NCBI RefSeq assembly: GCF_018612875.1
Contig: NZ_JAGGRI010000023.1
Coordinates: 62,001 to 126,000, forward strand
From: Lysobacter sp. ISL-50
GTDB lineage: Bacteria; Pseudomonadota; Gammaproteobacteria; Xanthomonadales; Xanthomonadaceae
Length of the DNA stretch: 64,000 nt
Direction: 5' to 3'
The translations under genes were made by a program, and so were the position numbers. Positions 2,181-11,887 of the stretch are shown here, piece after piece; the stretch's first letter is position 1, and each line of letters opens with the position of its first letter. The notes under the pieces are model-generated. The model was not told the origin of the DNA. It searched no databases and saw only the letters and a program-made list of their open reading frames with translations.

Positions 2181-3650
2181 TCAGGCCTCGGCACGCATTC
2201 GCTCCGCCGCCCGCTGCAGGGTGCGCGGAGCGCGCAAATTCACCTGCTGCGCCATCACGTGCTGCTCAACGAGTGCCTTGCGCTGGCCTCGAATGCCATT
2301 TGCCGTGGTGATCTCGCGCAGGATCTGGCCCAAGGAGACGCCACGTGCCACCGCCAAGGACACCAACTGCTCCAGTTCGAAGATGCTCACGAATAGCATG
2401 TGCCCCGGCGCAAGACGCAGCGAATCCCATCGCGCATGACCTGTGCCATCGGCGGTGCCGGCGACCAGTTCGCGCAAGGCCACTCCATCGGTGACCAGCA
2501 GTTGCTTGAAGGTCACGCATACGAAGTATGTCTCATTCCGACGCAGGTCCTCGGGAAGCCGCGAGGCGCTGTTCACCGCCTGGTCGACGGCGCGCAGCAG
2601 AGACAATTTCATCCGTTCGGCCAGCACGGCCGGTAGATTGTGGTAGAGCTCCTCGTAGTGGCCTTCGATTCCCTTAGCGTCGAGCAACACCAAGGCGTCG
2701 TCCGCGGGCATGGCAAAGTCCACCACGTTGCCCTCGCCTTGCAGGCGCTCTTTGAGCTCCGTCTCACGGATCACCGGTGCCGCCAGGTCCTCGAGGACTT
2801 CGGCAATGTAGTTCTCGAATGCAGGCCCGAATTCATTCATGAAGGCGCGCGCTCCAGTGGCGCGTGCCAAATCGAACACCGCAGTGCCCAACGTCTGGAA
2901 CAGAAGCTTGTGGTGGATGCACACCGGCCCTTGCTGGGCGAGCAGGAAGGGAGTAGCGATGAAGGGCGACTGTTCGCACACCTCCACCTCCGGCGGCGTA
3001 TTTCGTTGTTCGGCCTCGAGCGCGATGCGGTGCAGGTCGGGCACCGGTCGGCTGAAGTGCCGCCGGATCACTTCCCAGTGCTGCAGGTCGCGAAGGCCTG
3101 CCGGCCGCTGTTGCGATAGCCCCGGGATTTGCAGAGCATCGCCACTGTCGGCGGCGAGGTACGCGAGTTGGCGCAGAAACTGCGCCGGCGTTAGCCGGTG
3201 GCGTTCCACAAAGCGCGCGGAGGTCGCCGAGTTGGCCAGCATCTCGCCCAACATGCGATGTTGGCGGGCGAGAGACCCCGGGTCGAAGCGACGCTGGAAC
3301 CAAATCTGCTGTAGGAACAATCGCCTCGCAAAGATCGTCTCCCCCGCACCGGGCATGTTAAGGGCGGCCATGGCATCCCAAATTGACTGGCCAACGAAGT
3401 TGATGTCGTCGTCGATCGGCACGGGACGCTCATCGTTCGGCCGCCAGCTGGCAAGGCCCCACTTGGCGATGAGTAACCACACGTGCGGTTTGCGCAGGTA
3501 CCACTCTTCACCGTCGTCAGGTGGGCGCCGCAACATGTCAAAGGCCGCATTGAAAAAAGCCAGGCCATGGCAGGCGCGAAGGCGCGCCTTGGCCTGCGCG
3601 AGCAACTCTCGTCCGTGTTCGATTGTCATTGCATCGTCAGGGGCATTCAT
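2181..3650 (-). CDS. PD-(D/E)XK nuclease-fold protein, candidate defence gene
   Basis: This 489-residue protein starts at ATG 3650 (MNAPDDAMTI). Residues 305-326 carry a nuclease-like active-site pattern: Glu279 in a predicted helix (FENYIAEVL), Asp311 in VVDF, and Asp324-Ala325-Lys326 after a short hydrophobic strand (ALVLLDAK). That is the spacing expected of the PD-(D/E)XK fold used by restriction-type and other DNA-cleaving enzymes. The N-terminal 250 residues are helical and match no family I know. The gene stands alone on the minus strand, about 250 bp after the broken DUF4238 gene, with nothing resembling a modification methylase nearby. A solitary large nuclease in an island with QatABCD suggests an antiphage or abortive-infection role, but that is inference from motif and context. 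The reading frame is intact. Confidence 0.65.
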   Translation of the reverse strand: MNAPDDAMTIEHGRELLAQAKARLRACHGLAFFNAAFDMLRRPPDDGEEWYLRKPHVWLLIAKWGLASWRPNDERPVPIDDDINFVGQSIWDAMAALNMPGAGETIFARRLFLQQIWFQRRFDPGSLARQHRMLGEMLANSATSARFVERHRLTPAQFLRQLAYLAADSGDALQIPGLSQQRPAGLRDLQHWEVIRRHFSRPVPDLHRIALEAEQRNTPPEVEVCEQSPFIATPFLLAQQGPVCIHHKLLFQTLGTAVFDLARATGARAFMNEFGPAFENYIAEVLEDLAAPVIRETELKERLQGEGNVVDFAMPADDALVLLDAKGIEGHYEELYHNLPAVLAERMKLSLLRAVDQAVNSASRLPEDLRRNETYFVCVTFKQLLVTDGVALRELVAGTADGTGHARWDSLRLAPGHMLFVSIFELEQLVSLAVARGVSLGQILREITTANGIRGQRKALVEQHVMAQQVNLRAPRTLQRAAERMRAEA

Positions 3651-3901: not shown

Positions 3902-4757
3902 TCAAGACGCGGGCCGCGTTGTCCGCTTGACCCGATTCGTTTCAGCCACCTCGGTTGGCGTCGCGAGCCGGCGCGTCCAATCGGGAAGCAGCTCGCCGTC
4001 CGCGGGACTCCACCGAAGGGCCAGTCCGCTCGAGATAGGCAAGGTGAACCCCTGGCCGAGGTTGGGTGGAAACGGAGTGTCTCCCAACACGAAGGCCGTT
4101 CCGACCGGGGCGTCCAGGATCTCTACGCTGTGCCGCGCCAGTTGGAAGAAGACGCGCTCAATCGTTTCTGGATCGAGCGCGATCTGCGAGGGCAAGATTG
4201 CGTCGTTCGGAGGCCGGGTGAGCACATCGTCCATCTCCTCAAGTAACGCTTCCTCATCCCGTTTCCGAATGAGGTCGTAGGCCCACGCAGCTTCCTCAGG
4301 CCCGATCCCAAGCTTGCACAAGCTGACCTGATAGTCACTCAGAGACTGATTGAACGCGTCAACCAGCGCGACAGCGAGCTCTTTCGACCTGCGGTGACCC
4401 ATGTTCAAGGTGTCCGGATGTCGGCATGCGCTGAAGGCCACGAACCATCGAAGGAAGATCTGGTCCTCGACCGAGCCCACTGCACCTAGCGTGTCCAAAT
4501 TCGAGAACGCCTTCGCTGCCTTGGTCTCGAAGTGACCCGCCGCGCGCTCCAACGCATTGGAAGGACGCCCCCCCCGCGTCATAGATCGTGTAGAGCCAAT
4601 CCTGGCTCATTAACTTCTTCGGGCCGACCTTCTTCGTGCGGTTGTCTTGTAGGGTCCAGACTTCTCCATTTCCAGCCTCGAAACGTCGCTGCCAGAACTG
4701 GGGCACGTAGTGTCGGTTCCGGGTTTCGAGCGGATCGTATTCGTTAGCGGAAGCCAT
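3902..4757 (-). pseudogene. DUF4238 family protein, frameshifted at a G8 tract
   Basis: The N-terminal part starts at ATG 4757 and contains NRHYVPQFWQRRF, the opening signature of DUF4238 proteins, which have no established function. The rest of the protein, from RPSNALERAAGHF to the stop at 3902, is in another frame. The switch coincides exactly with eight consecutive C (plus strand) at 4568-4575. With seven, the two parts join as one 284-residue protein, which matches the total length minus one base. As written, the first frame continues as unrelated low-complexity sequence. An ATG at 4582 just before the tract could restart translation of the second part (226 residues). The cause may be phase variation, a real mutation or a sequencing error. 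Confidence 0.7.
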
Positions 4758-4852: not shown

Positions 4853-5439
4853 CTACATTGACCCACCGGCCAGCGCTTGCCGCACGGCAGTGGCGATATA
4901 GTTAATGTGTTCCGGCGTCCGCAGATCCCCGCTAATTTCCAGCTGCGCTCCCATTCCGCGACTTCCTCGATTACAAATGTTGGCAGGACGTCGTGCCGGG
5001 AACTCATGACCGCTAGCAATTGCAGGGTAGCTTGCTCCTATCAATGCGGTAGTTAACAAAGCTGCCAAGGACTTGTCCAAGCCCCCGACGCATATCCTTG
5101 CGTCGCCCGAACACCCATGAATGGCGACAACCGTATGCGCCAGTGCCAGCATTTCAAGACAGCGAGGCTCAGAAAATCGATGGCTGGTCACATGAAGCAC
5201 GCCATTGCCTTCTGCCTTAAGCCCTTCAAACAGGTAGACAGAGTAGTCCGCACCGGCAATGCCCCTCGCGAGCGGAGAGGTTCCGGGCTCAATACCACCG
5301 CCATGGGGGGGGCGAGCACGAGTACGTCTTGCCTAGCTCCGCGAATATCGGTAATAGAGTAGTCGTGGCCAAGTATCTCAGCAGCGGCTAAGTCTTCAAA
5401 ACTGGAGTAGTGGTCGGGTCTGCCCATAGTAGAAATCAC
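4853..5439 (-). pseudogene. Poly-gamma-glutamate hydrolase family (YjqB/PghP) protein, frameshifted at a C8 tract
   Basis: The two halves are clear. From the GTG at 5439 (or ATG at 5427) the frame runs to DVLVLAP. The next frame then gives HGGGIEPGTSPLARGIAG, SVYLFEGLK, LHVTSHRFSEPR, VVAIHGCSGD and the C-terminal INYIATAVRQAL. The HGGGIEPGTS block with its metal-binding histidine, and the later SHRF and IHG segments, are the hallmarks of the zinc-dependent poly-gamma-glutamate hydrolase/YjqB family found in phages and bacteria. The frames meet at eight G (plus strand) at 5295-5302. Six would give the standard APHGGG reading and a 194-residue protein. The gene begins 4 bp beyond the qatD stop, so it would be transcribed with the Qat operon. 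As written it is broken. Confidence 0.8.
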
Positions 5440-5443
5440 AAGC

Positions 5444-6256
5444 TCAAGTGGTTTTGAACAGTCGTAGCTGTCTGTTGATGCTGGCGCCAGGTGTGGGAGA
5501 GAGCATCGAAGCCAAGTTGCTCGTAATCTGGTCAGCCAAGCGCGTGGAATCGATGCCTCGCAACTTTGCGAGCAAAGCTACTGTGGACGGAATATCTGTC
5601 GGGCGCGCTGGACGCTCATCGAACGTCACGAACGGCCCATCCGTCTCGGTTAATAGACGATCTATAGGTAGGGCTCGAAGCAATGCATGCATCTTCTCGG
5701 ACCTAACCATCTCGACGTTGAGGGAGAAATAGCAGCCCAACTCTATCGCACGGGTCGCCTCAGACTTCGTTCCGGTAAACCAGTGCAGAACCGGCACACA
5801 GGTTTTATTACGTAGATGCAGATCCAGTTCTTTAAGGACCTTGGAAACAGCCCTCACGCTGTGAATGCTTAGGATCTTCCCACCGTGCTCATCGCAGGCC
5901 CTAAGGATCCGCTCGAACACGCGCCGCTGCTCTTGGAAGCTAGAGTAATACCGCGGTCCCGCATCGAGGCCGATTTCGCCCACATACCGCGCCCGGGATA
6001 AGAGCTTCTCAAATATTGGCAGTTCGTCCGCTCGCTCCGCGACCAACTGCGGATGTAGGCCCAGCCCTACGAGGGTGTAGGGATAGCCCATGGCCATCTC
6101 GACGTTACGCGCGAAAGCCTTGGGGGTCGTTGTTACCCCCAAAGTTACGATCTTCTCCGCATCGCACTCGCGTATGAGGTCCTGATGGTCCCGATACAGA
6201 TCCAAGTGACAGTGGAAGTCGACCCATCTTGGTGATGTAGGAACCGCGCTAGTCAA
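5444..6256 (-). CDS. qatD: QatD, TatD-like metal-dependent nuclease of the Qat antiphage system
   Basis: This 270-residue TatD-family protein has the metal-site landmarks in order: HxH in DFHCHLD near residue 15, Glu in VGEIGLD, His in SIHSVRA, His in VLHWFTG and Asp in LTETDGPF. Housekeeping TatD is an exo-DNase. In QatABCD this subunit is one of four needed for defence, but its exact substrate is not known. Its ATG overlaps the qatC stop by 4 bp, so the two are translationally coupled. The length is typical and all metal ligands appear present. The order qatA-B-C-D is what rules out a stand-alone TatD. Confidence 0.9.
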   Translation of the reverse strand: MTSAVPTSPRWVDFHCHLDLYRDHQDLIRECDAEKIVTLGVTTTPKAFARNVEMAMGYPYTLVGLGLHPQLVAERADELPIFEKLLSRARYVGEIGLDAGPRYYSSFQEQRRVFERILRACDEHGGKILSIHSVRAVSKVLKELDLHLRNKTCVPVLHWFTGTKSEATRAIELGCYFSLNVEMVRSEKMHALLRALPIDRLLTETDGPFVTFDERPARPTDIPSTVALLAKLRGIDSTRLADQITSNLASMLSPTPGASINRQLRLFKTT

Positions 6257-7626
6257 TCTGAAGGCCTCGACTCGACATTCTCCAGCAGACGGGCTACTTC
6301 CTCTAAGCCGTTACGATATACGGCTTCATAGTCGCCCCAGTTGTCCGGGAAGTCTATCAAGGGCCCGGGTTTGTGGATGTCGAATTTCGCCCTTTGCGGA
6401 CGCGCCCTCAGTCGGGCGATGGCGAGCTGGAACGAGCGGACGTGCTCTCCCTCAGCACTCTTGCTGTCCAACGCGCTTTCTTCCAGGTCGATTAATTGGT
6501 AGTCGGTGTCGTCCCGTCCGAAACCGCGCTTCAAAGCAGCTCGTCTAATAAGGCAGGGAACGCAATGCCCACAGTTTTTAGGCTGACGCCTATCCTCGTC
6601 CTGAGAGAAGCGAGCCTTGTTCGGCGATGAGCACGAAATAGTGTTGCTAGCGTGCTCTACTAGAAACTTCTGATCCGCACAGTGCTCGACCATCTCTCCC
6701 TTCGTCATGTGACGATACGCATTATGGAGATTTCCGCTCACTCCAATGACGCGTAACAACTCGTTGAAACGAGCCATGTAGTAGGGATGGGTTGTCCGGG
6801 TACTAAGGGATCCCAAGCGGAGCGGATCGAGCGGTACATTGAGGGAGATCAAACCATTCTCGGGCACATGGATGATGACATCACCGCCGATCGCGTCGGC
6901 AGCAAGCGCCGCCAGCGCGAAGAAGAGAAATGACCTCCCTCTCAACGTGTTCTCGCCCTTGGAACCCTCTACCGTACCGGTCGCAAAACCCACTCGCGCC
7001 CTGACCGAATAGAACGAGACATCGGCATAGCTCTCATGGAGCGCGGATAGGCAAATGTCTTGATGTTTACTTGTGATGCCATCCCACCAGTGACTCACAA
7101 GCAAGACACTCTCTTTCTGGGTCAGCAGGTCTACAGCGCCAATGAAACTATCCAAGCCTCCGGAGAACAAGCAAACCGATGCTGGCTTGTCCGCAAGAGT
7201 GTCCGTAATTGGTTCGAGGATAGCCGCGACGGAAAGTGCCCGCGGCCTGAACGCGAGGGTCCACCTATCACCAGTGAGGAAGTTGAGTGTCGACTCAATG
7301 AGTGGCGTCGCCCCCACCCATATCTCGTGGTCGCTCATAGGAAGACATAGCTCCAGTTCTCGCGTCCACCCGTCTTGCCCGTCCACACCCCGTTCTACAC
7401 GAGTATCTGCGGCGGTAACTGCTGCTGCGAGCAGTGCCAGATCAAGCGCTCGCTCAGATGGCTGCAACCCAAGCGCTTCCAGCTTGGTCAACATACCTCC
7501 GAGCTGATGATCGATAGCGTCGAAACCTTCGAAGAAAACCTCGGTGACGTGCGATCCATCAAGCCTCCGATCTACCTGTGCCACATCGTCTGCGCCGATT
7601 CGGAATACGATCGATTGCCTAGTCAT
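6253..7626 (-). CDS. qatC: QatC, QueC-like PP-loop protein of the Qat antiphage system
   Basis: This 457-residue protein carries an adenylating PP-loop, SGGLDS, at residues 155-160, and a cysteine-rich segment near the C-terminus (SCSS, then CGHCVPC at about 370). QueC, the 7-cyano-7-deazaguanine synthase, has both features. The protein is about twice the length of housekeeping QueC because of a 150-residue N-terminal extension, as expected of QatC. It is inferred to act on a nucleobase or a protein tail by ATP-dependent adenylation; the reaction is not established. Its ATG overlaps the qatB stop by 4 bp, and its stop overlaps qatD. Confidence 0.92.
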   Translation of the reverse strand: MTRQSIVFRIGADDVAQVDRRLDGSHVTEVFFEGFDAIDHQLGGMLTKLEALGLQPSERALDLALLAAAVTAADTRVERGVDGQDGWTRELELCLPMSDHEIWVGATPLIESTLNFLTGDRWTLAFRPRALSVAAILEPITDTLADKPASVCLFSGGLDSFIGAVDLLTQKESVLLVSHWWDGITSKHQDICLSALHESYADVSFYSVRARVGFATGTVEGSKGENTLRGRSFLFFALAALAADAIGGDVIIHVPENGLISLNVPLDPLRLGSLSTRTTHPYYMARFNELLRVIGVSGNLHNAYRHMTKGEMVEHCADQKFLVEHASNTISCSSPNKARFSQDEDRRQPKNCGHCVPCLIRRAALKRGFGRDDTDYQLIDLEESALDSKSAEGEHVRSFQLAIARLRARPQRAKFDIHKPGPLIDFPDNWGDYEAVYRNGLEEVARLLENVESRPSD

Positions 7627-8489
7627 TCCATGTCTCCCGCCGTTGCCGACACCAGTTCAAAGGAGGCCTCGTAGATGGATTCGACGACTTGCGCAACCTG
7701 CTGATCCGTCTTCTCCGTCAATCCATCGAAATGCCGGGCCAAATGACCGCGTACACATCCAGCGACAAAGTCGTGCAGTTGGTCCAGGATGCGTTCAACT
7801 TCCCGCACGTTCTCTGGTGAGTCGATCACGTGTTTTCCTATATCGGCGATCACACGTCCCTCAATAGTATGAATAACGAATCCTTGAAAGAACTCGGATA
7901 GCTGGTCCGCCGTCATCTCCTCAAAGGTACCCGCATCCGATTCCGCGAGATCCGCGATCGAATCGAGGAGTGCTTGCCTTGCAATGGCTTCATCTACTCG
8001 GCCGCCTGGCGGACACATTCCTTCTAGCAATTCGACAAAGACTTCAGCGGCAGGTCGACCCGCTAAGTGTCCGAGGTTGAGTCGCTGCAGAACGATGGCA
8101 GCGCCGTCTCGGTCGATGTCGCGAATGACCTGAAGTAGCTGCTTACCAACACCTCGGGACGCCCCCATACGCCGAGCGGCTTTACCAGCGGAGCCAGTGC
8201 CGTTACGCACGTATTGGGACACTGCTCGCCGAAGCGTTTCGGAATCTCCACTACGAACAAATCGAGTGAAGTTGCCCTTCGCTCCGCCAAGCGCACCGGC
8301 AGAGGAAGTGTCAGGCCCGGCAACTGGAACCTTTGGGGAGGTCGGTTGCGGCGCAGGAGATCCATCGTTGCCACTCGCGGGATCACTTGGCGCTGCGGTA
8401 GGCGCCCCCGCCGCCCCGGGGGCGGTGTCGTCAATCCAACTGGGAACCAGCCCCGATGGGGCTCCACCGTATCCCTTCGATGTGCCCAT
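7623..8489 (-). CDS. qatB: QatB, component of the Qat antiphage system
   Basis: This 288-residue protein begins MGTSKGYGGAPSGLVPSW, the conserved start of QatB proteins. About 70 residues of disordered Pro/Ala/Ser/Thr-rich linker follow, then a helical domain. No catalytic motif is visible and the molecular role is unknown. It lies 3 bp after the qatA stop and overlaps qatC by 4 bp, so the whole operon is tightly packed. A conserved extreme N-terminus followed by low-complexity sequence suggests the N-terminal tail could be a substrate or docking element for QatC, which is speculation. Confidence 0.88.
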   Translation of the reverse strand: MGTSKGYGGAPSGLVPSWIDDTAPGAAGAPTAAPSDPASGNDGSPAPQPTSPKVPVAGPDTSSAGALGGAKGNFTRFVRSGDSETLRRAVSQYVRNGTGSAGKAARRMGASRGVGKQLLQVIRDIDRDGAAIVLQRLNLGHLAGRPAAEVFVELLEGMCPPGGRVDEAIARQALLDSIADLAESDAGTFEEMTADQLSEFFQGFVIHTIEGRVIADIGKHVIDSPENVREVERILDQLHDFVAGCVRGHLARHFDGLTEKTDQQVAQVVESIYEASFELVSATAGDME

Positions 8490-8492
8490 ATA

Positions 8493-10436
8493 CTATTTTT
8501 CTCCGATTTTACTGCTGAGATCCGCTGCTCGTTGAAGTTTCTTGTTGTCCGACTGCTCTAACCAACCCTTCAGCACCTCCTGATAGTCGAGGCGGGCAGC
8601 CGCGTCGGTGAACGCATTCCCGAACGCTGCCGGCGGCCAGACCCCCACTTTTTCTATAGGCAACTCTTTGATGAAACCAACTAAGCGTCCTTCCAGCTCG
8701 GGCCGCGCCTTAACAAGCTCCAGCAAACCACGTACGCCTTCGGGCTGCTTGCTGAACGCGTCCTCCTCAAGAATGCGGATCCTCACTGAGTCGAACAGTT
8801 CCTCCGCAAAGGACGCCGTCATGCCCTGAGCAGATTGTGCGGCGGCTTTGGCCTTCAAGGCTCCAGCCATGAGATCGTCAGTGAGTTGGCCGAGCTGAGT
8901 GGTGGCGCCGGTGCCTCCGAGCAGCATTCGCTTATCGCGAGTGACGAAGATGTAGGGCCGCAGATCGGCGTTGGCTAATGGCGGTGACAGCGATGCCCAC
9001 GTCTTTATCCAATCGATTTTGATCCAATCTTCGATATCCTCAGGGGGGACAGGCTTCCCTGGCTTCATCTTCAACAATGCTCCCGGCTTGGCCGCTTCTG
9101 GCGGCGTGACCGAAGCAGGTTCGGCCACGAACTCTTCAAGCACCTTGATGCGAGCCGAGGATCCATCACTGGACCCACTGGCGTCCCGGGCGATCTCCTC
9201 GAAAAAATCGGACTTGAATCGCTCTGCAAGCATGAGTTTGGCAAGCGCAGGAACGGAAATATCGCCGCCAAAACCTCTCGCATCGCCGATTTCCTTTCGA
9301 AGCAGCATGGAGTTCAAGAAGCGTTTTATCTGCCGTGGATTTCCTTTTGTCCCTTCAGCCAACATTGCGGTTAGCTGGCCAGCAACAACGAGGGCCTGAT
9401 CGGCCGCCGGCGGGGCTGGATCCCCCATCGCAGCAATCATTGCTTTGGCGGTTATGCCTTCGCTAAGCCAGGGGCGGCGCATGTCTTCACGCGCTGCTTC
9501 GAGAAGCTTGCCGAACCCGGCGTGGCTAGAACCGAACTCAGCTTCGACCATTAGCAACGTGATGTAGGTGCGTGTCTCCGCACCACCTAAGGAGGGAATA
9601 CGGAACGGAACCTGGATGAGCTTTTCAAGATAATTTCGAGCGTAGCTGACCGGACCTGCCGAAGGAGGGAGGTCAGGAAAATGATCTCTGACCGCATATT
9701 CGATCATCATCTCGTCGGCACCGATGACAAATGCTGTGCGCTCGACGAACAGAAATAGGCGAATTGCTTCCAGAGTACCGATCGCAGTAGACGGCAAGCA
9801 GCGATCCAGATCGTCGACCATCACCACTAATTGCTTAATATCCGCGGCATCCAGCAAGTCGATGAACTCCTTGCGAAAGGCATGGATATGCATCGGGATG
9901 CTATCTTCCTCTGCATCCTTGAAAAGCCCAGTCGTCTCGTCGGCGAAACCCTCAATGTCCTCCCTTGTCAGCTCGCCAGCGGATTTCCCTAATGCCGTTT
10001 TGGCCGCGCCGATGAGGTCCCCTATCTGACTGAAGGTTGGAATACCAGTTGCGACCGTGAACGCGAGTCCCCCCGCCTTCTTCGCCACCTTCAGCCAGTC
10101 CACACGCTTAAGCAGTTTTTTGGCGGCATCTTTGACCTTCTGAGACTGGGGCCTCGCTCGCCTCAGCTCGTCAATAATCGTCTCAAGAACGACGGTCTTC
10201 GCGTCCTCGAACCCCTCGAAGGCCCAGCCGTTAAACCAGACGCAGAGGACGCCATCCTTCTCCTCTAGCACTGCTTGCGCCATCTTCAAGACGCTCGACT
10301 TACCCGCGCCCCAGTCGCCATGTACGCCTATCGTTATAGGTATACCAGGAGTCTTCTCGATCAGTTTGACAACTGTTTTGGCAATAGCGTCGTACTGCAA
10401 CATGTCTGTCGCAGTTTCTTGGTCACTAATGAACAC
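8493..10436 (-). CDS. qatA: QatA, KAP-family P-loop NTPase of the Qat antiphage system
   Basis: I place the start at GTG 10436. A GGAGG sits six bases upstream, and the product then begins FISDQETATDMLQYD, the usual QatA opening. The longer frame back to 10550 adds 38 residues of unlikely sequence. The 647-residue protein has a Walker A motif (GVHGDWGAGKSS, residues 37-48) and a Walker B motif (VVMVDDLDRC, about 204-213), as in KAP NTPases. A GNPRQIKRFLN segment near residue 370 fits the sensor region of that family. KAP NTPases often work in defence or at membranes, but no clear transmembrane pair is seen here. It is the first gene of the operon and probably drives or senses in an ATP-dependent way. 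Confidence 0.93.
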   Translation of the reverse strand: MFISDQETATDMLQYDAIAKTVVKLIEKTPGIPITIGVHGDWGAGKSSVLKMAQAVLEEKDGVLCVWFNGWAFEGFEDAKTVVLETIIDELRRARPQSQKVKDAAKKLLKRVDWLKVAKKAGGLAFTVATGIPTFSQIGDLIGAAKTALGKSAGELTREDIEGFADETTGLFKDAEEDSIPMHIHAFRKEFIDLLDAADIKQLVVMVDDLDRCLPSTAIGTLEAIRLFLFVERTAFVIGADEMMIEYAVRDHFPDLPPSAGPVSYARNYLEKLIQVPFRIPSLGGAETRTYITLLMVEAEFGSSHAGFGKLLEAAREDMRRPWLSEGITAKAMIAAMGDPAPPAADQALVVAGQLTAMLAEGTKGNPRQIKRFLNSMLLRKEIGDARGFGGDISVPALAKLMLAERFKSDFFEEIARDASGSSDGSSARIKVLEEFVAEPASVTPPEAAKPGALLKMKPGKPVPPEDIEDWIKIDWIKTWASLSPPLANADLRPYIFVTRDKRMLLGGTGATTQLGQLTDDLMAGALKAKAAAQSAQGMTASFAEELFDSVRIRILEEDAFSKQPEGVRGLLELVKARPELEGRLVGFIKELPIEKVGVWPPAAFGNAFTDAAARLDYQEVLKGWLEQSDNKKLQRAADLSSKIGEK

Positions 10437-11347: not shown

Positions 11348-11887
11348 ATGCATACTACATATGCAGTCGCTAAAGCGACTGCCGACGCTACCGTCTTGCC
11401 TGCTGTTTGCGATCTGGATATATCCGATGGCGAAAGATTTTTCGAGTTGTTGCGTTCCAAATCAACCGAGCTGGGATGGTTGCTGCGCCAAGTCGAAACC
11501 CATATCGATGAGCAGCACCAGCGGGCCAAAGCAGCCCGTGACATTGATGAAATGCAAAGATTGGAAGATGCCGATCCCTATCGCTGGTTCGCAGACGCAA
11601 AACACTCGTTGCAGGCCGGCCTCATGTTTCTGGAGCGAGCTGTCACCCAATCGACGGCTTTCCACGGTGGGGGCGTGGAACGGCGTCTGATTAGACTTCC
11701 TCAAGTGGTTGAACGGACTGGCTTATCGCGTTCCACCATTTATCGTCGCGTAGCCGAAGGGGGCTTCCCCAGGCCGGTCAACCCCAGAGGTTCCCTTTCG
11801 GCCTGGGTTGAAGATGAGGTCAATGCCTGGATCAATGCCGAGATCATGAATCGAGACGCGAAGTCCGGCTTCAGCTCCATGGATTGA
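11348..11887 (+). CDS. AlpA-family phage/island transcriptional regulator with an extra N-terminal domain
   Basis: The 179-residue protein starts at ATG 11348. The C-terminal 60 residues (RLIRLPQVVERTGLSRSTIY, then FPRPVNPRGSLSAWVEDEVNAWI) are a MerR-like AlpA DNA-binding domain, used in many prophages and islands to control excision or integrase genes. The first 110 residues form a helical domain with a GWLLRQVETHIDEQ segment, resembling small uncharacterised proteins of proteobacterial islands. It is the last gene before the tRNA-like sequence at about 11990, the usual place for an island control gene, although no integrase is in the window. The upstream direct repeat is a possible binding site. 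Confidence 0.8.
   Translation: MHTTYAVAKATADATVLPAVCDLDISDGERFFELLRSKSTELGWLLRQVETHIDEQHQRAKAARDIDEMQRLEDADPYRWFADAKHSLQAGLMFLERAVTQSTAFHGGGVERRLIRLPQVVERTGLSRSTIYRRVAEGGFPRPVNPRGSLSAWVEDEVNAWINAEIMNRDAKSGFSSMD

What the first reader, a model, noticed from the sequence alone, without database searches (positions are those of the whole stretch)
4853..10436. QatABCD operon with a fifth, linked poly-gamma-glutamate hydrolase gene
qatA, qatB, qatC and qatD are intact and translationally coupled (gaps of 3, -4 and -4 bp). A YjqB/PghP-family gene begins only 4 bp after qatD in the same direction. I know of no described role for this family in Qat. A hydrolase of gamma-glutamyl chains could undo or complete a tail modification made by the QueC-like QatC, or act against phage-associated polymers. 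The coupling is seen; the function is inferred.
Basis: partly seen in the sequence, partly recalled or inferred. Interest (0 to 1): 0.72.

Follow-up and report, generated by a model that had tools for sequence, protein, structure and literature searches.

The report
Qat phage-defence operon with optional hydrolase
A known four-gene bacterial anti-phage system here carries a fifth, tightly linked gene for a zinc hydrolase, and the same pairing turns up with the fifth gene at the other end of the operon in other bacteria, although the copy in this sequence is split by a frame break.

Summary
A complete qatABCD operon lies on the minus strand (10436-5444; junctions 3, -4 and -4 bp). A PF05908 (PghP/YjqB-type) gene starts 4 bp after qatD. 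As read, that gene is two open frames that meet at a run of eight G (5305-5312); together they cover the domain.

The linkage is recurrent but uncommon. Of 80 Qat loci from genome contigs, 1 carries the gene; the window's four closest Qat relatives do not. PF05908 is rare in this phylum (7 of 398 genomes, own included), yet 3 of the 19 genomes found to hold it (own included) have it joined to Qat. The QatC tree separates window-type from Delftia-type Qat, so the gene was probably gained at least twice, at opposite ends.

Zinc-ligand and substrate-recognition residues are conserved. Best reading: an optional zinc amide hydrolase of Qat, probably acting on a gamma-glutamyl-type bond. Its substrate and its role in defence are inferred. 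The defence-island passenger reading stays open. Novelty: a new variant of a known system.

The parts
8493..10436 (-). qatA, KAP-family P-loop ATPase (647 aa)
   Evidence: PADLOC QatA 873.6 bits; NF041923 843.2 bits, cut-off 600; PF07693
7623..8489 (-). qatB (288 aa); begins MGTS with P16 and W18, in the tail region required in the published system
   Evidence: PADLOC QatB 311.4 bits; NF041924 211.3 bits, cut-off 100; N-terminus; motif from PMC13279940
6253..7626 (-). qatC, QueC-like protein (457 aa), with SGGLDS and STRTTHP motifs
   Evidence: PADLOC QatC 610.4 bits; NF041925 522.5 bits, cut-off 280; motifs
5444..6256 (-). qatD, TatD-family nuclease (270 aa)
   Evidence: PADLOC QatD 362.4 bits; NF041926 333.6 bits, cut-off 230
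5188..5439 (-). N-terminal frame of the PF05908 hydrolase gene (83 aa; leaves the family frame at the G8 run)
   Evidence: family HMM positions 5-40, E 6e-4; no Pfam hit on its own
4853..5332 (-). C-terminal frame of the PF05908 hydrolase gene, holding the zinc-ligand and catalytic residues
   Evidence: PF05908 82.2 bits for its part 4853-5200, 140.8 bits in the genome search; invariant H10, E15, H47, T49, S50, H72, E132
5305..5312 (.). run of eight G (C on the coding strand) where the two hydrolase frames meet

Best explanation
This is a Qat anti-phage operon with an optional fifth gene for a zinc amide hydrolase of the PghP family. The gene is placed to be translated together with Qat, at either end of the operon, and its product probably cuts a gamma-glutamyl-type amide inside the cell. 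Shown here: the joint operon layout, its recurrence, purifying selection on the Delftia-type copies, and conservation of the catalytic and substrate-recognition residues. Inferred: that it works with Qat, where, and on what. I think it most likely acts on a small gamma-glutamyl substrate or conjugate, as a regulator or range-extender of QatBC like QatA and QatD. It is not a required part. In the window as read it would be off, because the frame is broken.
For: Window spacing of 4 bp after qatD with no promoter or terminator listed between. Hydrolase stop overlapping qatA start by 4 bp in L011, L071, L127 and L163. PF05908 is rare: 7 of 398 phylum genomes, 10 of 369 class genomes over cut-off, 2 of 385 in a second class, 2 of 328 in the window's order, both Qat-joined; own genome included. 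Of 19 distinct genomes with PF05908 over cut-off, 3 are Qat-joined (own, G679, G1349). Chance expectation for the 18 others is about 0.0014; crude P for 2 or more is 9e-7, or 0.002 if defence islands raise the odds 50-fold. Upstream neighbours of the hydrolase differ (OLD/UvrD pair, SIR2-like/HerA, Mrr-like) while qatA stays next to it. dN 0.19-0.24 against saturated dS among L011, L071 and L127. The zinc ligands and residues needed in PghP that the seen passages of PMC6506827 name are invariant in the 9-row alignment A2, window included (numbers mapped by eye through the phage PghP row). Solved homologues of the Delftia protein include 5onj and 3a9l.
Against: Only 1 of 80 Qat loci from genome contigs has it (68 of the 80 have at least 700 bp on both sides), and the window's closest Qat relatives L015-L018 lack it. 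In the phylum sample none of the six other PF05908 genomes is among the QatC matches, whose sample may not hold all six. Published work finds QatBC alone enough against lambda (PMC13279940). PF05908 also sits beside other defence-type genes (Ssp-type sets, SIR2/caspase genes), as a passenger would. L163 matches L011 at 100% over 17.4 kb and is not an independent case. The window's copy is broken as read.
Confidence: 0.45

Rival explanations
1. Passenger: the hydrolase is a mobile defence-island or nutrient gene (for example for feeding on gamma-glutamyl oligomers) that landed next to Qat and has no role in it.
For: Rare among Qat loci (1 of 80). PF05908 lies near other defence-type genes on rhizobial plasmids, and 16 of 18 other genome copies have no Qat gene in the fetched stretch. 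PMC4497714 proposes horizontal spread and a nutritional benefit (passages).
Against: Start/stop coupling to Qat in each of the five Qat cases read, at both ends; the same qatA neighbour beside three different upstream gene sets; purifying selection; adjacency far above the crude chance figure.
Confidence: 0.3
2. [quoted passage not shown]
For: QatC is proposed to modify the QatB N-terminal glycine, its reaction is unresolved and its nucleobase-recognition residues are replaced (PMC13279940). The hydrolase fold includes amidases: N-formylglutamate amidohydrolase is a listed structural neighbour of PghL (PMC6506827). One PF05908 gene lies divergently beside a distant QatC-like gene in Ensifer canadensis.
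Against: The gamma-glutamyl-recognition H-x-T-S residues are kept, which does not suggest a new substrate. Most sampled Qat loci manage without it. The Ensifer hydrolase's sister in S. medicae has no Qat neighbour in the 11-kb stretch read.
Confidence: 0.12
3. The hydrolase attacks a phage-borne or phage-needed gamma-glutamyl polymer, such as folyl polyglutamate of T4-like baseplates (recalled; my paper search found nothing held).
For: Active site of the gamma-PGA hydrolase type. The Delftia N-terminus shown has no obvious signal peptide (by eye, no program run).
Against: No direct evidence; it would not explain the link to Qat in particular.
Confidence: 0.08
4. On the frame break, a separate question from the readings above: the G8 run is a length-variable (phase-variable) tract, or a read or assembly error, rather than plain decay.
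For: The only two G/C runs of 7 or more in the window (C8 4568-4575, G8 5305-5312) start 737 bp apart and each splits a gene, the other being a DUF4238 gene. 17 distinct runs of 8 or more were found in 5.9 Mb, so about 0.03 such close pairs are expected. No other stop interrupts the two hydrolase frames between the start at 5439 and the stop at 4853.
Against: The tract is not shared: in 19 PF05908 genes of relatives the longest G/C run near the first zinc His is 2 to 5 (a twentieth gene, L124, was not readable by the motif). A codon-bias test of the other runs was inconclusive. No reads are held.
Confidence: 0.5

Closest known systems
QatABCD anti-phage system (NF041923-NF041926; structures in PMC13279940)
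   Same: All four genes, order, coupling, QatB MGTS tail, QatC SGGxDS and Thr motifs
   Different: A fifth coupled gene; the word 'hydrolase' occurs 0 times in the main text of PMC13279940 and of PMC13329287
PghP / PghL (YndL) poly-gamma-glutamate hydrolases, PF05908, PDB 3a9l and 5onj
   Same: Sequence family, zinc ligands, catalytic Glu, H-x-T-S motif
   Different: Joined to a defence operon; the window frame and the Delftia protein are 37% and 34% identical to a phage PghP; the window copy is split
Type IV CBASS Cap9/Cap10 deazaguanylation
   Same: QueC-like enzyme with an N-terminal glycine partner protein (as described in PMC13279940)
   Different: I know of no PF05908 gene there (recalled, not searched); the QatC reaction is unresolved

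Membership tests
QatABCD system | QatA, QatB, QatC, QatD each above the NCBIfam equivalog cut-off, adjacent and co-directional | tested here: met
   (843/600, 211/100, 522/280, 334/230 bits)
QatABCD system | QatB N-terminal MGTS with P16/W18, and QatC SGGxDS with the Thr-x-Thr motif | tested here: met
   (Thr motif matched by pattern, not by numbered alignment); requirements from PMC13279940
QatABCD system | Defence against phages | not testable with these tools
   needs plaque assays
PF05908 Gamma_PGA_hydro | Score above the Pfam gathering cut-off (22 bits) | tested here: met
   82.2 bits for window 4853-5200 alone; 140.8 bits in the genome search
PF05908 Gamma_PGA_hydro | Zinc ligands and catalytic residues (PghP H40, E45, H78, T80, H103, E165) | tested here: met
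   invariant in alignment A2 of 9 rows including the window frame (residues from passages, numbers mapped by eye)
PF05908 Gamma_PGA_hydro | One uninterrupted reading frame in the window | tested here: not met
   two frames meeting at G8; intact copies exist in L011, L071, L127 and L163
PF05908 Gamma_PGA_hydro | Hydrolysis of gamma-glutamyl chains | not testable with these tools
   needs an enzyme assay

The most novel reading that the evidence does not exclude
The hydrolase reveals QatC chemistry: QatC joins a gamma-glutamyl-type carboxylate, not 7-carboxy-7-deazaguanine, to the glycine of QatB, and the PghP-like enzyme trims or removes that conjugate, so some Qat systems run a write-and-erase cycle of a new protein modification. 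In the window this eraser may be switched by a variable C8/G8 tract.
Probability: 0.07. Interest if true: 0.9.

Novelty: new variant of a known kind. Interest (0 to 1): 0.5.

Why it matters
The reaction of QatC is an open question in print (PMC13279940). A hydrolase with a known bond preference, joined to Qat in two separate lineages, is a concrete lead on what that reaction makes or needs, and intact natural five-gene sets exist in which it can be tested by removing one gene.

Tried and rejected
Dropped readings: (1) 'Unique to this strain': rejected by L011, L071, L127 and L163. (2) 'A general part of Qat': rejected, 1 of 80. (3) 'The four Qat-joined hydrolase rows (window, L011, L071, L127) are one clade': not shown and not rejected (p-AU 0.446). 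A first tree held a misread 51-residue row (L122) and is superseded, where that row was re-cut and the L163 row, a copy of L011, was left out; the identities quoted do not involve L122. The family HMM was built from the alignment, misread row included. (4) Relatives in viral contigs: 8 stretches matched a pattern, 0 confirmed. (5) E. coli: blastn with the Delftia gene found no match in 20,395 records. (6) Deciding whether the other long G/C runs break genes by codon bias: inconclusive. (7) T4 folyl-polyglutamate literature: none held. Rows dropped before counts: two weak PF05908 matches under cut-off (G469, G620). G240, whose PF05908 gene holds a stop, was counted among the 19 but left out of the trees.
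Full report
Observation. The finding's coordinates and junctions are exact. qatABCD is complete on the minus strand and each protein passes the NCBIfam equivalog cut-off and matches a PADLOC model. qatA has a GTG start after GGAGG. QatB begins MGTS with P16/W18, and QatC has SGGLDS and STRTTHP; the MGTS motif, a tail segment with P16 and W18, the SGG motif serines and the two Thr are needed for defence in PMC13279940 (parts 1-3 of 6 of the text read; word search of the main text). In the same script a QatB MGTS-type start was found in 82 of 86 loci, two of the misses being L011 and L163, which do begin MGTS; a strict QatC Thr pattern matched in 59 of 86. The PF05908 gene starts 4 bp (GTG) or 16 bp (ATG) after the qatD stop, and a consensus scan listed no promoter or terminator between them.

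The hydrolase gene is split. Its N-terminal frame matches family HMM positions 5-40 and its C-terminal frame positions 39-192; they meet at a G8 run. Next door, a DUF4238 gene is split the same way at C8 4568-4575: its two frames match Pfam positions 1-52 and 57-203, both under the curated cut-off (20.1 and 26.0 bits against 27). These are the only G/C runs of 7 or more in the window. The genome has 17 distinct runs of 8 or more (24 overlapping matches, 17 after removal of overlaps), so about 0.03 pairs this close are expected by chance. The hydrolase tract is not shared by relatives: 2 to 5 in 19 genes. Length variation, read error and decay are all open.

Recurrence. A plasmid search with the C-terminal part (4853-5200) gave 23 records; the best, Delftia acidovorans and D. 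lacustris, carry the hydrolase directly before qatA. The Delftia protein found 46 plasmid records (40 listed). Of 107 plasmid records with a QatD match at 1e-25 (60 listed), the two Delftia ones are the only listed records that are also among the listed hydrolase hits. A genome-contig scan with QatC found 147 relatives and kept 80. One of the 80, Paracidovorax valerianellae L071, has the gene, again directly before qatA. A more sensitive HMM over 102 loci brought in by Qat searches (the 80, L014, L002-L010, L170-L181) gave only L071 and the window's own locus; L002-L010 and L170-L181 reach only 1.5 kb from QatC and would miss a gene before qatA. Of the 80, 68 have at least 700 bp on both sides. 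PF05908 searches of overlapping genome samples gave 19 distinct genomes over cut-off. I searched the stretches fetched around all 18 others (12 to 20 kb, some cut by contig ends) for Qat proteins: G679 and G1349 have hydrolase-qatABCD, 16 have none. G1349 shares 17.4 kb at 100% with the Delftia plasmid, so it shows either transfer or contamination and not an independent event.

Layout. In L011, L071, L127 and L163 the hydrolase stop overlaps the qatA start by 4 bp. The genes before it differ: an Mrr-type gene (L011), an OLD-type nuclease with a UvrD helicase (L071), and a SIR2-like gene with HerA (L127). In L011 an ATP-dependent endonuclease and a UvrD-helicase gene, by annotation, follow qatD instead. 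dN is 0.19-0.24 with saturated dS (2.55 or beyond estimate) among L011, L071 and L127, so the protein is under purifying selection.

Origins. In a FastTree QatC tree rooted at its midpoint, the window's system groups with L015 and L017 (support 0.81), which lack the hydrolase, and the ancestor shared with the four Delftia-type systems spans 86 of 89 tips. The four Delftia-type systems fall in a clade of 12 tips, 8 of them without the gene (7 of the 8 have over 7 kb before the qatA frame, L066 has 671 bp). Hydrolase trees do not settle whether the window's and the Delftia-type hydrolases are sisters. At least two gains by Qat, at opposite ends of the operon, is the simplest account.

Chance. 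QatC at 90 bits or more is in 13 of 368 non-own phylum genomes (my count). Expected PF05908-to-QatC adjacency within 5 kb over 18 loci is 0.0014; two were seen. The model is crude, because defence genes cluster and one of the two is the Delftia island. With 50-fold clustering P is still 0.002. Against this, none of the six other PF05908 genomes is among the QatC matches (its sample may not hold all six).

Chemistry. PMC6506827 (passages only) names the zinc ligands, residues whose loss harms PghP, and residues that contact the gamma-linked substrate. The equivalents of PghP H40, E45, H78, T80, S81, H103 and E165 are invariant in all nine aligned proteins, the window frame included (numbers mapped by eye, offset 2 in the phage PghP row L159). 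So the enzyme should be a zinc amide hydrolase, most plausibly for a gamma-glutamyl-type bond. No signal peptide is obvious by eye in the Delftia protein. PMC4497714 (start of abstract and passages) proposes a nutritional role and spread by horizontal transfer for such genes.

What it may do. PMC13279940 finds QatBC enough against lambda, with QatA and QatD affecting range, and leaves the QatC reaction open. PMC13329287 (section 7 and passages) treats it as proposed carboxydeazaguanylation. A fifth optional enzyme fits the same class of range- or state-modifiers. Whether it trims a QatB conjugate, supplies or removes a small molecule, or attacks a phage component is not decided by anything here.

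Wider setting of PF05908. Apart from Qat, PF05908 genes lie divergently beside an SspB-type set in Agrobacterium sp. T29 and, by annotation only, a like set in Sinorhizobium terangae; beside a distant QatC-like gene in Ensifer canadensis; as a C-terminal domain behind a RelA/SpoT domain in Rhizobium rhizogenes; and 5' of a TPR-GreAB-C-PIN gene in G254. The neighbours of the other genome copies were listed as open frames but not scanned against a family library. This supports both a defence role and the passenger reading.

Literature. I found no paper that links PF05908 to Qat: 'poly-gamma-glutamate hydrolase' with 'anti-phage' gave 1 paper, with 'defense system' 2 (listing only), family names 9, Qat terms 44, of which 25 were listed (two relevant ones read in part), 'Qat' with 'TatD', 'anti-phage' and 'accessory' 0. 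Gao et al. 2020 itself (recalled) was not looked up or read. PMC11996544 was seen only in a search listing. No preprint library is held.

Noticed in passing
window 3902-4757 (-): DUF4238-type gene split into two frames at a C8 run (4568-4575), 737 bp from the hydrolase's G8 run.
   Followed up: partly
window 2181-3650 (-): GapS1-like protein (NF047931, 287 bits against a cut-off of 320), a second likely defence gene beside Qat.
   Followed up: no
window 11348-11887 (+): AlpA-type regulator (PF05930) just outside the low-GC Qat block (54.6% GC), suggesting a mobile element edge.
   Followed up: no
L158 3544-7372: Ensifer canadensis plasmid: distant QatC-like gene (PADLOC QatC 111 bits), a small partner gene and an XRE/M78 protease, divergent from a PF05908 gene; possibly an undescribed QueC-type system.
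   Followed up: partly
L156 4178-7369; L167 1108-8582: PF05908 gene divergent from an Ssp-type set in two rhizobial plasmids (SspB by PADLOC in L156; annotation only in L167).
   Followed up: partly
L013 4452-8384: RelA/SpoT domain and PF05908 domain in one 1310-aa protein, near SIR2 and caspase-family genes.
   Followed up: no
   Followed up: partly
L043 11290-12948: Open frame over qatD is about twice the usual length (Phenylobacterium aquaticum); possible fusion.
   Followed up: no
L052: Pseudomonas putida locus with qatBCD found but no qatA match.
   Followed up: no
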